Positions 619 to 10,376 of a DNA stretch of 10,453 nucleotides are shown piece after piece. The stretch is from Sulfurimonas sp. (GTDB taxonomy: Bacteria; Campylobacterota; Campylobacteria; Campylobacterales; Sulfurimonadaceae): the NCBI GenBank assembly GCA_027011725.1, contig JALUZQ010000098.1, positions 1-10,453 of the forward strand. The letters run 5' to 3'. The notes beneath the pieces were generated by a model, which was given only the letters and a program-made list of their open reading frames with translations, did no database searches and was not told the origin of the DNA. The translations under genes and the position numbers were made by a program. The number at the start of each line of letters is the position of its first letter. Positions within the stretch are counted from its first letter, which is position 1.

Positions 619-1184
619 AATTGTAAGAAATTTCCTATCATTTCATGTCCATATTCACTCATAATCGATTCGGGGTGGAACTGTACACCGTAAATATCTT
701 TGTCTTTGACTTTTAATGCCATAATCTCTTCATCATCCCCACTAAACGCAGTCGGTTCTATAGTTTCAGGAAGAGTGCTTTTGTCTACTATCAAAGAGTG
801 ATAACGAGTAGCAGTAAACTCTTTTGGTATATCTTTAAAAATAGCGCATTCTTGCGTTCGCACCATTTTTGATGTTTTCCCATGCATCATATTTTTTGCA
901 CGAACGACATCAGCGCCAAAAGCCTGTGCAATACTTTGATGTCCTAAACAAATACCTAGAATCGGCACTTTATCTTTAAAATGCTCGATCACTTTAAGAG
1001 TGATTCCCGCTTCATCAGGAGAAGCTGGCCCAGGGGAGATAATAATCTTCTCAGGATGGAGAGCTTCAATCTCCTCCACACTCATCTCATCATTACGTAT
1101 AATTTTTAAATCAGCACCAAGTTCACGACAATATTGCACTACATTATATGTAAAACTGTCATAATTATCTATCATCAAAATCAT
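615..1184 (-). CDS. pabA: Glutamine amidotransferase subunit of aminodeoxychorismate/anthranilate synthase (PabA/TrpG)
   Basis: This 189-aa class I glutamine amidotransferase has the usual length for PabA/TrpG. It releases ammonia from glutamine for a chorismate-using partner (PabB for folate, TrpE for tryptophan) in the cytoplasm. The start MILMIDNYDSFTYN is typical of the family. The nucleophile is Cys79 in GICLGHQ, the oxyanion segment SPGPASP lies at 50-56, and the His170/Glu172 pair sits in VQFHPES. All catalytic residues are present. The ATG at 1184 is preferred over the one at 1175 because an AGAAGGA ribosome site lies about nine bases upstream of it. No pabB or trpE is in the window, so PabA and TrpG cannot be told apart; isolation from trp genes slightly favours PabA or a shared subunit. 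It lies 28 bases behind the ABC permease gene and its stop overlaps the next start (ATGA). Confidence 0.9.
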   Translation of the reverse strand: MILMIDNYDSFTYNVVQYCRELGADLKIIRNDEMSVEEIEALHPEKIIISPGPASPDEAGITLKVIEHFKDKVPILGICLGHQSIAQAFGADVVRAKNMMHGKTSKMVRTQECAIFKDIPKEFTATRYHSLIVDKSTLPETIEPTAFSGDDEEIMALKVKDKDIYGVQFHPESIMSEYGHEMIGNFLQL

Positions 1185-1212
1185 ATTATTTTATCCTTCT
1201 ATGGAATTATAC

Positions 1213-2010
1213 CTAATTTTGCAGCTCTTTTTGATTGGTGAGGCTTTGTAAATAATTCGAAATATTGATAAGAGAAAAAGTTACCAAAAATATCATCAAA
1301 CCGGGGAAAAAGCTCACCCACCAAGCGATGTCCACCACATCTTTTCCTCCACTGAGTATGCTACCCCAACTCATCTGCGGAGCAACAATACCAAGCCCTA
1401 AAAAGCTCAAAGACGATTCAGCGAGAATAGCTCCGCCTACCCCGAAAGTAAAACTTACAAAGTAAATAGGTGCCAAAAGTGGTGCGTAATATTTCATCAA
1501 TATTTTCAGCTTGTTCATTTTTGCAATATTGAGAATCTTAATGTAAGGTTGTGAAGTAATTTTAAAACTCTCAGAACGGATTAAACGTGCTGTAGTCATC
1601 CACCCTGTTATGGAAATAATCACAATAAGTACCCATACAGAAGCATTTACATAACTCACAAGTGCCAAAAGTAAAAAGAATGTTGGAAAGGTCAAGAAGA
1701 GATCTACACTCACAACGAACATCTTATCAAAGCCGCCTCGAAGATATCCGGCTAAAGAGCCGTACAATAGACCAATGAACGAAGCAATGAAGGCACTCCC
1801 TACCCCAATAATCAAAGAAACTTTTCCTCCCTCCATCAGGCGTGCAAGCAGATCTCTTCCAAGTCTGTCCGTGCCAAGAAGGTGCTCAAGCGAGGGAGCA
1901 GACAAAATAGAGTGGGCATTAAGGCTATAAGGACTAAGTGCATAAAAGTAAGGTCCAACAAAGGAAAAAAAGAAGATCATACCCAAAAGAGCTATGCTAA
2001 AGCGAGGCAT
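1213..2010 (-). CDS. OppC/DppC-like ABC transporter permease
   Basis: This 265-aa inner-membrane permease belongs to the peptide/nickel (Opp/Dpp/Nik) importer family. The signature near the N-terminus, HLLGTDRLGRDLLARLMEGG (about 43-62), and the C-terminal ILAESSLSFLGLG with PQMSWGSIL (about 195-219) are diagnostic of the OppC/DppC branch. About six membrane segments are expected. It is somewhat short because the protein starts almost directly in the first helix, without the usual cytoplasmic leader. The coupling (EAA) loop at about 156-178 is degenerate: Lys158 stands where the Glu of EAA is expected and Lys164 where the near-invariant Gly is expected. No partner permease, ATPase or binding protein is in the window, so the substrate is unknown. 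It starts three bases after the flgK stop, with only a weak ribosome site (AGGA about 15 bases upstream), so translational coupling to flgK is likely. Confidence 0.85.
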   Translation of the reverse strand: MPRFSIALLGMIFFFSFVGPYFYALSPYSLNAHSILSAPSLEHLLGTDRLGRDLLARLMEGGKVSLIIGVGSAFIASFIGLLYGSLAGYLRGGFDKMFVVSVDLFLTFPTFFLLLALVSYVNASVWVLIVIISITGWMTTARLIRSESFKITSQPYIKILNIAKMNKLKILMKYYAPLLAPIYFVSFTFGVGGAILAESSLSFLGLGIVAPQMSWGSILSGGKDVVDIAWWVSFFPGLMIFLVTFSLINISNYLQSLTNQKELQN

Positions 2011-2013
2011 CTG

Positions 2014-8719: not shown

Positions 8720-8731
8720 ATAAAGAGACCC

Positions 8732-9994
8732 ATGGATTATCTAAAAATACATTCGACACAACAACTCAGCGGTGAGATATCAATTTCAGGCGCAAAGAAC
8801 GCTTCACTGCCCCTTATAGCAATGACAATCCTTGCTAAAAAACCACTGACCATCGGAAATCTTCCTGATGTTGTCGACATAAAAACACTTCTCAAACTCC
8901 TTACAAAACTCGGTGCAGAGTGTGAGTTCTCACATAAAAGTGTCCGCGTTGACACTTCAAGTATTAACGAGACAAAAGCAACCTATGATATTGTAAAGAC
9001 TATGCGTGCTTCCATTTTAGTACTAGGCCCTATTCTTGCACGTTTTGGACATTGTGAGGTTTCACTTCCGGGTGGTTGTGCCATCGGTCAGCGCCCTATT
9101 GACTTACATCTCAAAGCGCTCGAACAGATGGGTGCACATATAGATATACAAGCCGGATATATTCAAGCGACTACACCAAATGGACTTCATGGATGTGAAA
9201 TAATCTTCGACAAAATTACCGTAACGGGAACTGCGAACATCGTTATGGCGGCAGCACTTGCAAAAGGGGTCACTACCATTACAAACGCAGCGAGAGAACC
9301 CGAAGTAGTACAGCTTTGTGAGATACTTGCAAAAAGTGGTGTCAACATCAAAGGTATTGGTACGGCGATACTGGAGATAGAGGGAACTGACGGTGCACTA
9401 CTTGATATAGCAGATTTTGATGTCATTCCAGATAGAATTGAAGCCGGAACATATCTATGTGCCGGAGCCATTACAAAAAATGAACTTACCCTCACACATG
9501 TCGAACCAAAACATCTCGGTGCAGTGCTCTCAAAGCTTGAAGAGATGGGAAGCAGTTTTACCATTACAGACGACACCATCACCATTCATCCAGCACAAGA
9601 GATAAAGCCTGTAAAAATAGTCACGCAAGAGTACCCTGCCTTTCCAACAGATATGCAAGCACAGTTCTTAGCACTTGCAACACAAGCAGAAGGTGTCTCT
9701 ATAATAGAAGAAAAACTCTTTGAAAACAGATTTATGCATGTAAGTGAACTTCAACGTATGGGTGCAGATATAACACTCAATGGACATACAGCAACAGTAA
9801 GTGGAAAAACAGAACTCAGTGGAACAGATGTTATGGCAACAGACCTTAGAGCATCAAGCGCACTCGTTCTTGCTGCACTTGTTGCAAACGGTGAAACTAA
9901 CATCCATAGAATTTACCACCTCGACAGAGGATACGAGGCACTTGAAGAAAAACTCCAAAATATTGGAGCAAAAATAGAACGCCTTAAAGAGTAA
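8732..9994 (+). CDS. murA: UDP-N-acetylglucosamine 1-carboxyvinyltransferase MurA
   Basis: This 420-aa cytoplasmic enzyme transfers enolpyruvate from phosphoenolpyruvate to UDP-GlcNAc, the first committed step of peptidoglycan synthesis. The length is normal for the family. Lys22-Asn23 in ISGAKNASLP bind substrate, Arg92 lies in TMRASILVLGP, and the catalytic loop LPGGCAIGQRPIDLHL carries Cys116, the residue alkylated by fosfomycin, so this form should be sensitive. Further typical blocks are VTGTANIVMAAALAKG, PDRIEAGTYL, PAFPTDMQAQF, ENRFMHVSELQRMGA and DLRASSALVLAAL. The ATG at 8732 follows a weak ribosome site (AAAGAGA). It is the only plus-strand gene here, divergent from the 143-aa gene and convergent with hspR. 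Confidence 0.97.
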   Translation: MDYLKIHSTQQLSGEISISGAKNASLPLIAMTILAKKPLTIGNLPDVVDIKTLLKLLTKLGAECEFSHKSVRVDTSSINETKATYDIVKTMRASILVLGPILARFGHCEVSLPGGCAIGQRPIDLHLKALEQMGAHIDIQAGYIQATTPNGLHGCEIIFDKITVTGTANIVMAAALAKGVTTITNAAREPEVVQLCEILAKSGVNIKGIGTAILEIEGTDGALLDIADFDVIPDRIEAGTYLCAGAITKNELTLTHVEPKHLGAVLSKLEEMGSSFTITDDTITIHPAQEIKPVKIVTQEYPAFPTDMQAQFLALATQAEGVSIIEEKLFENRFMHVSELQRMGADITLNGHTATVSGKTELSGTDVMATDLRASSALVLAALVANGETNIHRIYHLDRGYEALEEKLQNIGAKIERLKE

Positions 9995-10000
9995 GGCGTT
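9978..10000. terminator. Bidirectional intrinsic terminator between murA and hspR
   Basis: AACGCCTTA (9978-9986) and TAAGGCGTT (9992-10000) form a perfect 9-bp stem with a 5-base loop (AAGAG). On plus it is followed by AATCTTCTTT; on minus by CTATTTTTG, so both sides have a moderate U-rich tail. The stem contains the murA stop codon and overlaps the hspR stop (9999-10001). The two stops are only four bases apart, so one hairpin serves both convergent genes. Confidence 0.75.
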
Positions 10001-10376
10001 AATCTTCTTTAAAAACTACCATTTCATACAGACTTTTTTTCGTCACTAAAGACTTCTCAGGTGCAACAGAGTGTGCATTTTTTGCCATCTCGACATCATG
10101 ACGAAGCTCTGCTATTTCTCGCTCCATAGAGTCTATCGTCTCTTTAAGATTTAAAATAATATCTACACCCGCAAGATTTACCCCAAGTTCACGAGTTAAA
10201 CGCAGTATGAGTTTGATCCTGTCAATATCTCTTTGAGAATAGAGCCGAATACGTCCATCTGAGCGAGAAGGTGTGATGAGATTTTCTCTCTCATACTGAC
10301 GCAGCGTTTGTGGATGAATATCCAAGATCTTTGAAACTATACTTATGAGGTAAACCGGTTCATCGTATGTATGCAT
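9999..10376 (-). CDS. hspR: HspR-type MerR-family heat-shock repressor
   Basis: This 125-aa DNA-binding repressor controls chaperone genes. The N-terminus EPVYLISIVSKILDIHPQTL followed by RQYERENLITPSRSDGR and IRLYSQRDIDRI is the classic HspR form of the MerR winged helix. RLTRELGVNLAGVDIILNL follows, then a coiled-coil dimer helix (about 75-100). No metal-binding cysteines are present, as expected for HspR. In Campylobacter and Helicobacter, HspR represses operons that include cbpA-hspR itself, dnaK and groEL. Here it lies nine bases behind a gene that is probably cbpA/dnaJ, with a strong AGGAGG ribosome site overlapping that gene's stop. The operon promoter and operators are outside the window. 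One AAACGCAG octamer lies at 10198. Confidence 0.93.
   Translation of the reverse strand: MHTYDEPVYLISIVSKILDIHPQTLRQYERENLITPSRSDGRIRLYSQRDIDRIKLILRLTRELGVNLAGVDIILNLKETIDSMEREIAELRHDVEMAKNAHSVAPEKSLVTKKSLYEMVVFKED

What the first reader, a model, noticed from the sequence alone, without database searches (positions are those of the whole stretch)
744..10205. A heavily over-represented octamer, AAACGCAG, dispersed through the genes of this region
Seen: 13 exact copies in 10.45 kb against roughly 0.3 expected, mean spacing about 800 bases, 7:6 strand balance, all intragenic, with a pyrimidine on the 5' side every time. In gene sense it is read as x-Asn-Ala-x (7 copies), Ala-Phe (3) or Leu-Arg-Leu (3), in proteins as unrelated as MurA, FlgK, RsmD and HspR, so protein motifs do not explain it. 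Asn-Ala pairs in FlgK outside the motif mostly use AAT for Asn, which argues against simple codon preference. Established comparisons: DNA uptake sequences (Neisseria, Pasteurellaceae), Chi, KOPS and HIP1 are dispersed short motifs of similar density. The even strand balance fits an uptake or HIP1-like motif better than polar Chi/KOPS. I know of no such motif described for this group; that is not a literature search.
Basis: partly seen in the sequence, partly recalled or inferred. Interest (0 to 1): 0.85.

Follow-up and report, generated by a model that had tools for sequence, protein, structure and literature searches.

The report
Uptake-sequence-like DNA watermark in Sulfurimonas
A bacterium of the genus Sulfurimonas carries the same eight-letter DNA word roughly once every thousand letters of its genome, and some related species carry other such words instead, a pattern known from bacteria that recognise and import the DNA of their own kind.

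Summary
AAACGCAG occurs 13 times in the window (0.32 expected) and 1087 times in the 1.42-Mb draft genome, against 29 for the reversed string. It exceeds synonymous-codon shuffles about ninefold and shows no local strand polarity. Thirty of 135 genus genomes are enriched at least fivefold; none of 280 genomes outside the genus meets the same thresholds. Other Sulfurimonas genomes carry AGATGCTA (14, one borderline) or CTCACGCA (8); the sets do not overlap. Sites are conserved between motif-bearing species (G000 to G130: 18 of 22, against 21% of all octamers) but not towards a species without the motif (1 of 12). They are rare in two of three second replicons read and in a filamentous prophage. 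Best reading: a DNA-uptake-sequence (DUS/USS)-like self-recognition signal with lineage dialects, in a phylum where my searches found no report of one. ComEC is matched in 126 of 135 genomes. Uptake is untested, no receptor was found, and a methylation mark or HIP1-like role is not excluded.

The parts
744..751 (+). AAACGCAG copy, antisense inside a glutamine-amidotransferase (anthranilate synthase component II-like, named from recall) ORF 615-1184 (-)
   Evidence: exact in G014 and G129
2205..2212 (-). AAACGCAG copy, sense inside the flgK-like ORF 2014-3888 (-)
   Evidence: exact in G129, AAACGCGG in G009
3104..3111 (+). AAACGCAG copy, antisense inside the flgK-like ORF
   Evidence: AAATGCAG in G014
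3837..3844 (-). AAACGCAG copy, sense inside the flgK-like ORF
   Evidence: exact in G101, AAACGCTG in G009
4857..4864 (-). AAACGCAG copy, sense inside ORF 4633-4941 (-), flgJ-like by recall, no family search
   Evidence: exact in G009, not in G130
6173..6180 (+). AAACGCAG copy, antisense inside the rsmD-like ORF 6025-6615 (-)
   Evidence: exact in G130
6279..6286 (-). AAACGCAG copy, sense inside the rsmD-like ORF
   Evidence: exact in G130, G129, G149, G101; AAACGCCA (abundant in that genome) in G009
6727..6734 (-). AAACGCAG copy, sense inside ORF 6605-6985 (-)
   Evidence: exact in G130
7507..7514 (+). AAACGCAG copy, antisense inside ORF 6988-7689 (-), exonuclease-like by recall
   Evidence: exact in G130, G014, G129
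7802..7809 (-). AAACGCAG copy, sense inside ORF 7683-8276 (-), membrane-protein-like by recall
   Evidence: exact in G130, G014
8145..8152 (+). AAACGCAG copy, antisense inside ORF 7683-8276 (-)
   Evidence: exact in G130, G014, G149, G009
9283..9290 (+). AAACGCAG copy, sense inside the murA-like ORF 8732-9994 (+)
   Evidence: exact in G130, G014, G129, G149, G101 and also in G079 and G127, which are not enriched
10198..10205 (+). AAACGCAG copy, antisense inside the hspR-like ORF 9999-10376 (-)
   Evidence: exact in G130, G014, G129, G009

Best explanation
The octamer (fuller consensus YAAACGCAGYR) is a DNA-level self-recognition watermark that works like the DUS of Neisseriaceae or the USS of Pasteurellaceae. 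Shown here: it is spread over the whole draft genome (about 0.8 per kb), on both strands without local polarity, randomly spaced in G000, conserved at orthologous sites among motif-bearing species, rare in two second replicons and a prophage, and absent as an abundant word from other species of the genus, some of which carry a different abundant octamer. [quoted passage not shown] Fragments from the same species are then imported (through ComEC), protected (DprA) and recombined. Recombination with motif-bearing fragments maintains and spreads the motif (selection or molecular drive), and a change of receptor specificity gives a new dialect.
For: Abundance: 1087 against 29 control; 184 against 7.5 Markov and 168 against 18.1 synonymous shuffle; strongest carrier G149, 2331 against 83. 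For comparison, about 1900 DUS 10-mers in N. meningitidis (PMC3630211, section 6) and about 1300 USS in H. influenzae (passage of PMC5217627). No polarity: strands 10637:10546 summed over 30 enriched genomes; same/opposite neighbours 67/92, 50/41, 39/28 and 115/103. Random spacing in G000 (CV 1.01). Conservation: 18 of 22 (G000 to G130, 79% identity; all octamers 21%, composition-matched 16%), 13 of 16 (G149 to G016), but 1 of 12 and 1 of 11 towards G079 and G127, which are not enriched. Second replicons: G009 C2, 2 AAACGC[CG]A against 37.5 expected; G088 C2, 3 TCACGCA against 28.4. Prophage stretch in G149: 0 against 9.9 (integrase, Zot, secretin and replication-protein domains). Dialects: AAACGCAG in 30, AGATGCTA in 14 (one borderline), CTCACGCA in 8 of 135 genomes, no overlap. 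Synonymous-shuffle tests in carriers: AAACGCCA/AAACGCGA in G009, CTCACGCA in G088, AGATGCTA in four pooled genomes, all above every shuffle; in the other genome sets those words stay at about 0 to 2.5 times the shuffle mean except AAACGCGA in G010 (4.1). On a MurA tree of 47 genomes (24 AAACGCAG, 4 AGATGCTA, 1 CTCACGCA, 18 none) the states need 7 changes; minimum in 200 label shuffles 13. Machinery: ComEC matched in 126 of 135, DprA in 13 of 14, pilin-type N-termini in 12 of 12 plus the own genome.
Against: No uptake or transformation data. No receptor: the type II secretion cluster that first looked associated is matched in 21 of 30 enriched and 56 of 105 other genomes (Fisher p 0.14), and G010, 99% complete, is enriched without a match. 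The comEC-linked pilin does not seem to track dialect: by eye, that of G000 resembles G129's more than G130's although G130 is the nearer genome. ComEC: no match in the enriched genomes G003, G107 and G139 (82, 73 and 54% complete); stops inside the match in the dialect carriers G088, G013 and G160. Depletion is not universal: G086 C2 has 4 AGATGCTA in 20 kb against 1 in 20 kb of its chromosome (G086 is a borderline carrier); the Cas9/CRISPR stretch keeps 1 AAACGCAG and 6 AAACGCAG/A in 8.2 kb; another desert in G149 (206-218 kb) holds genes that look ordinary. The prophage stretch was chosen after seeing the desert and has lower G+C (0.31). Inverted pairs are rare here (4 under 60 bp in 204.6 kb), whereas H. 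influenzae USS often pair in terminators. Many enriched genomes have far fewer copies than G000 (down to 63). 83 of 135 genomes have none of the three words at the thresholds used. AGATGCTA is above its reversed-string control in most genomes, and some genomes not counted as carriers have a higher ratio than G086 (for example G120, 239 against 14).
Confidence: 0.75

Rival explanations
1. Methylation mark: the octamers are target sites of lineage-specific DNA methyltransferases, and the methyl group, not the bare sequence, marks self DNA for uptake or protection, as methylated RAATTY does in Campylobacter jejuni.
For: C. jejuni, in the same phylum, needs a methylated RAATTY motif for uptake (passage of PMC10046745). 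Dialect differences within a genus would fit turnover of modification enzymes.
Against: Restriction-modification sites are usually avoided rather than strongly enriched (general knowledge, not tested). No methylation data were available.
Confidence: 0.1
2. HIP1-like dispersed motif of unknown purpose (repair, nucleoid or mismatch-related), not linked to DNA uptake.
For: High density, both strands, mostly intragenic.
Against: HIP1 is an octameric palindrome (recalled); AAACGCAG, AGATGCTA and CTCACGCA are not palindromic. Non-overlapping dialects and rarity in two second replicons fit uptake signals as described for Neisseria (PMC2397512, passages; PMC3630211, section 6).
Confidence: 0.08
3. Chi- or KOPS-like polar signal for recombination or chromosome segregation.
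For: Such motifs are short, abundant and dispersed (recalled).
Against: No local strand bias: contig chi-square p 0.65 in G000; both strands in each of 12 bins of 20 kb in G149 C41.
Confidence: 0.03
4. Codon, dipeptide or composition bias, or a spreading repeat element.
For: The preferred frames encode common pairs (Asn-Ala, Ala-Phe).
Against: Synonymous shuffles give 18 against 168; all six frame/orientation combinations occur. The sequence outside about -2 to +10 carries almost no information, so no longer repeat is involved; the reversed string is rare.
Confidence: 0.02

Closest known systems
DNA uptake sequence (DUS) dialects of Neisseriaceae
   Same: About one copy per kb, abundant variants that follow phylogeny, conserved in the core genome and absent from recently acquired genes (PMC3630211 abstract and section 6; PMC2397512 passages).
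   Different: Different sequence, different phylum; here mostly single intragenic copies, few inverted pairs, and one dialect (AGATGCTA) with no obvious core shared with the others; no ComP-like receptor identified; function untested.
Uptake signal sequence (USS) of Pasteurellaceae
   Same: About 1300 copies of a 9-mer in H. influenzae (passage of PMC5217627); one orientation favoured in reading frames (abstract of PMC2346458).
   Different: Different sequence and phylum; H. influenzae USS often pair in terminators (same passage), here 4 inverted pairs under 60 bp in 204.6 kb.
Methylated RAATTY requirement of Campylobacter jejuni
   Same: Self-discrimination in uptake within the same phylum (passage of PMC10046745).
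   Different: Depends on methylation of a degenerate hexamer, not on an enriched octamer.
HIP1 of cyanobacteria
   Same: Dispersed octamer at high density, mostly in genes (recalled).
   Different: Palindromic (recalled); the octamers here are not.

Membership tests
DUS/USS-type uptake sequence | Short motif far above expectation, hundreds to thousands of copies | tested here: met
   some genomes over the threshold have far fewer (63 in G139)
DUS/USS-type uptake sequence | Both strands used, no local polarity | tested here: met
   position relative to origin and terminus not tested
DUS/USS-type uptake sequence | Sites conserved between relatives above their surroundings | tested here: met
   ten pairs of carriers; background level towards two genomes without the motif
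DUS/USS-type uptake sequence | Under-represented in recently acquired or mobile DNA | tested here: met
   G009 C2, G088 C2 and the G149 prophage; not seen for G086 C2. That the C2 contigs are plasmids is inferred
DUS/USS-type uptake sequence | Lineage-specific dialects | tested here: met
DUS/USS-type uptake sequence | Carrier has a DNA uptake and transformation machine | tested here: inconclusive
   ComEC, DprA and pilin-type genes matched, but competence unknown, and stops lie inside the ComEC match of three dialect carriers
DUS/USS-type uptake sequence | Motif raises DNA uptake or transformation | not testable with these tools
   Needs an experiment
DUS/USS-type uptake sequence | Receptor pilin (ComP/ComN-like) that binds the motif | not tested
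   No candidate singled out; the type II secretion cluster does not track the motif
Chi / KOPS | Strand polarity along a replichore | tested here: not met
   (local polarity)
HIP1 | Palindromic octamer (recalled) | tested here: not met
   AAACGCAG is not its own reverse complement

The most novel reading that the evidence does not exclude
[quoted passage not shown] At least three non-overlapping dialects within one genus, one of them unrelated in sequence, act as a barrier to gene exchange between species.
Probability: 0.65. Interest if true: 0.9.

Novelty: new member of a known kind. Interest (0 to 1): 0.85.

Why it matters
Uptake sequences are the best-known case of bacteria choosing DNA of their own kind, and are described for Neisseriaceae and Pasteurellaceae. 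A further case, in sulfur-oxidising environmental bacteria (recalled) of another phylum and with several dialects inside one genus, would show that such self-recognition arises repeatedly. It would also give a natural set of dialect differences for finding the receptor, and a practical handle for genetics in the genus: add the right octamer to transforming DNA.

Tried and rejected
Type II secretion cluster as the determinant: 6 of 12 genomes searched, all of the AAACGC type, shared it, but across 135 genomes the association is not significant and G010 is an exception. ComEC-linked pilins as the receptor: present in the 11 genomes compared, sequence does not follow dialect by eye. Chi/KOPS, codon bias, repeat element: see rivals. 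Terminator pairs: 4 inverted and 6 direct pairs under 60 bp. Literature: the octamer itself (1289 papers, 20 listed, judged by title and start of abstract, unrelated); DUS with Sulfurimonas (none) and with Campylobacter and over-represented (three; passages of one read, no such motif in them); uptake signal/dialect/DNA uptake (145 papers, 30 listed, no title on this phylum; one, PMC4864210, has an abstract on Helicobacter pylori, not opened); natural transformation or competence with Sulfurimonas (four and one, listing only); uptake sequences with Epsilonproteobacteria (one); DUS with Campylobacterota (none); (twelve listed; passages of PMC5217627 and PMC8308473 read: nothing on Sulfurimonas); RAATTY (four listed, passages of one read). 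The library lacks most subscription papers.
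Full report
Observation. The window holds 13 AAACGCAG, 7 on + and 6 on -, against 0.32 expected, and no shuffle of 200 reaches 13. All lie in ORFs. The 5' neighbour is T or C in 13 of 13.

Genome. The window is contig C98 of a draft genome of 1,416,224 bases in 279 contigs, 68% complete. The octamer occurs 521 times forward and 566 reverse; the string read backwards, 10 and 19. 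In 27 contigs fetched (204.6 kb) it is the most over-represented octamer: 184 copies against 7.5 by an order-2 Markov model. The fuller consensus is YAAACGCAGYR (C/T 93% at -1, C/T 79% at +8, G/A 69% at +9), with almost no information beyond about -2 and +10. Of 24 single-mismatch variants, AAACGCAA (52 against 14.4) and AAAAGCAG (42 against 27.0) have the largest excess.

Not coding bias. In called CDS there are 168 copies; shuffling synonymous codons within genes gives 18.1 on average, at most 27 in 40 shuffles. Sense 93, antisense 75. In two sets of relatives: 91 against 10.1 (sense 57, antisense 34) and 72 against 5.0 (35 and 37). Density in genes 0.91 per kb, between genes 0.68 per kb in G000. 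A signal read in RNA would be strand-specific; this one is not, though one set leans to sense.

No local polarity, spacing. In G000, neighbours are on the same strand 67 times and opposite 92; gaps have CV 1.01; contig strand chi-square p 0.65. On 240 kb of one contig of G149: 116 plus, 103 minus, neighbours 115 same and 103 opposite, both strands in each of 12 bins of 20 kb, while GC skew is positive in all 13 stretches fetched. There the spacing departs from exponential (KS p 0.008), with five gaps over 4.5 kb.

Who has it. Genus: the nearest named relatives by MurA include Sulfurimonas records, and G127 contig C28 has the same length (41,527) as a contig named Sulfurimonas sp. 355-202. Of 135 genomes of the genus, own included, 30 have at least 60 copies and at least 5 times the control, from 63 against 6 (G139) to 2331 against 83 (G149). 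A sample of 298 genomes of the order holds 280 outside the genus; none meets these thresholds (table read by eye). Among those with at least 60 copies the largest ratio I read is 2.4 (G282, 60 against 25); with fewer copies, G380 (54 against 12) and G379 (5 against 1) have higher ratios. On a MurA tree of 47 genomes the carriers fall in several clades and the state changes at least 5 times.

Dialects. Stretches of other genomes were searched for over-represented octamers and tested against 60 synonymous shuffles. G009: AAACGCCA 53 against 8.5 and AAACGCGA 36 against 6.3. G149: AAACGCAG 52 against 6.2 and AAACGCAA 54 against 7.9. G088: CTCACGCA 27 against 1.9. G083, G152, G153 and G165 pooled: AGATGCTA 69 against 16.0. 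Whole-genome counts: AGATGCTA stands out in 14 genomes (430 to 1329 copies, controls 29 to 113), picked by eye by count. In 13 of them it is 288 to 554 per Mb (genome sizes as printed, rounded); the fourteenth, G086 (179 per Mb), is borderline, since the next genome (G015) has 163 per Mb. This word is above its control in most genomes, and G120 (239 against 14) and some others not counted have a higher ratio than G086. CTCACGCA stands out in 8 genomes (621 to 962 in seven, 99 against 8 in G136). The three sets share no genome; together they cover 52 of 135. Under independence, no overlap has probability about 0.001, ignoring phylogeny. On the MurA tree (24 AAACGCAG, 4 AGATGCTA, 1 CTCACGCA, 18 none) the states need 7 changes; the minimum in 200 shuffles was 13, as for any heritable trait. 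Of the 8 CTCACGCA genomes, G088, G022, G007 and G027 keep an AAACGCAG excess of 2.9 to 3.7 times control, as if partly converted; G085, G013, G136 and G020 do not (below 2). CTCACGCAG and AAACGCAG share ACGCAG; AGATGCTA shares no obvious core.

Conservation. In pairwise alignments the octamer of one carrier is exact in the other in 18 of 22 (G000 to G130, 79.4% identity), 6 of 9 (G000 to G014), 13 of 23 (G000 to G129), 9 of 10 (G130 to G014), 18 of 41 (G130 to G129), 13 of 16 (G149 to G016), 22 of 40 (G149 to G101), 4 of 6 (G149 to G091), 8 of 19 (G016 to G101) and 5 of 19 (G000 to G149, 71%). All-octamer conservation in the same order is 21, 16, 13, 61, 15, 25, 17, 26, 14 and 11%; composition-matched octamers give 16, 7, 10, 55, 11, 22, 17, 21, 17 and 9%. 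Towards G079 and G127, which are not enriched, it is 1 of 12 and 1 of 11. In the window, 1 of 12 aligned sites (6279) reads AAACGCCA, the local dialect, in G009.

Mobile DNA. The second contig of G009 (80 of 82 kb read) has 2 AAACGC[CG]A against 37.5 expected from its chromosome; that of G088 (40 of 50 kb) has 3 TCACGCA against 28.4; that of G086 (20 of 37 kb) is not depleted (4 AGATGCTA). That these contigs are plasmids is inferred. The largest gap in G149 C41 holds a filamentous prophage with Zot, secretin, replication-protein and integrase domains: 0 AAACGCAG against 9.9, and 3 AAACGCAG/A against 18.6, in a stretch chosen after seeing the gap and at lower G+C. The adjoining Cas9/Cas1 region keeps 1 and 6 copies in 8.2 kb. 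None of the 27 G000 contigs is low at p below 0.03.

Machinery. Own genome: two pilin-type genes, a priA-like gene (by recall) and comEC on one contig and dprA. ComEC is matched in 126 of 135 genomes, DprA in 13 of 14 searched, not in G014. In C. [quoted passage not shown] A type II secretion cluster is matched in 77 of 135 and not significantly associated with the motif.

Mechanism. Shown: a DNA-level octamer on both strands, conserved, rare in some mobile DNA, with dialects. Inferred: recognition by the uptake machine and maintenance by recombination. Treangen et al. [quoted passage not shown] Frye et al. (PMC3630211, abstract and section 6) describe dialects following phylogeny. It works like these; membership cannot be claimed without an uptake test and a receptor.

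Limits. Genes were called by a simple ORF rule; drafts are incomplete; thresholds are mine; MurA is one gene; the AGATGCTA and CTCACGCA sets were picked from the count tables by eye.

Noticed in passing
L198-L203, L205, L206, L208-L210 (G079, G080, G082, G011, G032, G090), L197, L011, L026: The palindrome TACATGTA is about sixfold over synonymous shuffles in two pooled sets of Sulfurimonas without AAACGCAG, and frequent in a Sulfurospirillum contig (L026, 15 sites in 21 kb, printed as 30 because both strands were counted). Possibly another dispersed motif, or a regulator or modification site.
   Followed up: partly
G016 stretches (L096, L136-L139, L251, L259): A second abundant motif, CATGAGC (77 in CDS against 15.5 shuffled), coexists with AAACGCAG in one genome.
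   Followed up: partly
G088 whole genome: AAACGCAG counts are strongly strand-skewed (111 forward, 30 reverse); cause not examined.
   Followed up: no
L100 (G009 contig C2, 1-20000): CGAAGTCA occurs 12 times in 20 kb of a second replicon, perhaps iterons.
   Followed up: no
rows G088, G013, G160; L265: The ComEC match has one stop (G088, G160) or many stops (G013) inside, in genomes that carry a CTCACGCA or AGATGCTA dialect; loss of competence, or assembly error, is possible there.
   Followed up: no
L277:10369 to L278:9300: Filamentous prophage next to a Cas9/Cas1 locus with CRISPR-like repeated peptides in G149 contig C41.
   Followed up: partly
L279:14400-15539 and 16803-17942: Two 379-aa ORFs with the same first 60 residues, 2.4 kb apart, probably a recent duplication.
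   Followed up: no
rows G150, G157, G154: The ComEC match lies in open frames of 907 to 921 codons, possibly fused to a neighbouring gene.
   Followed up: no
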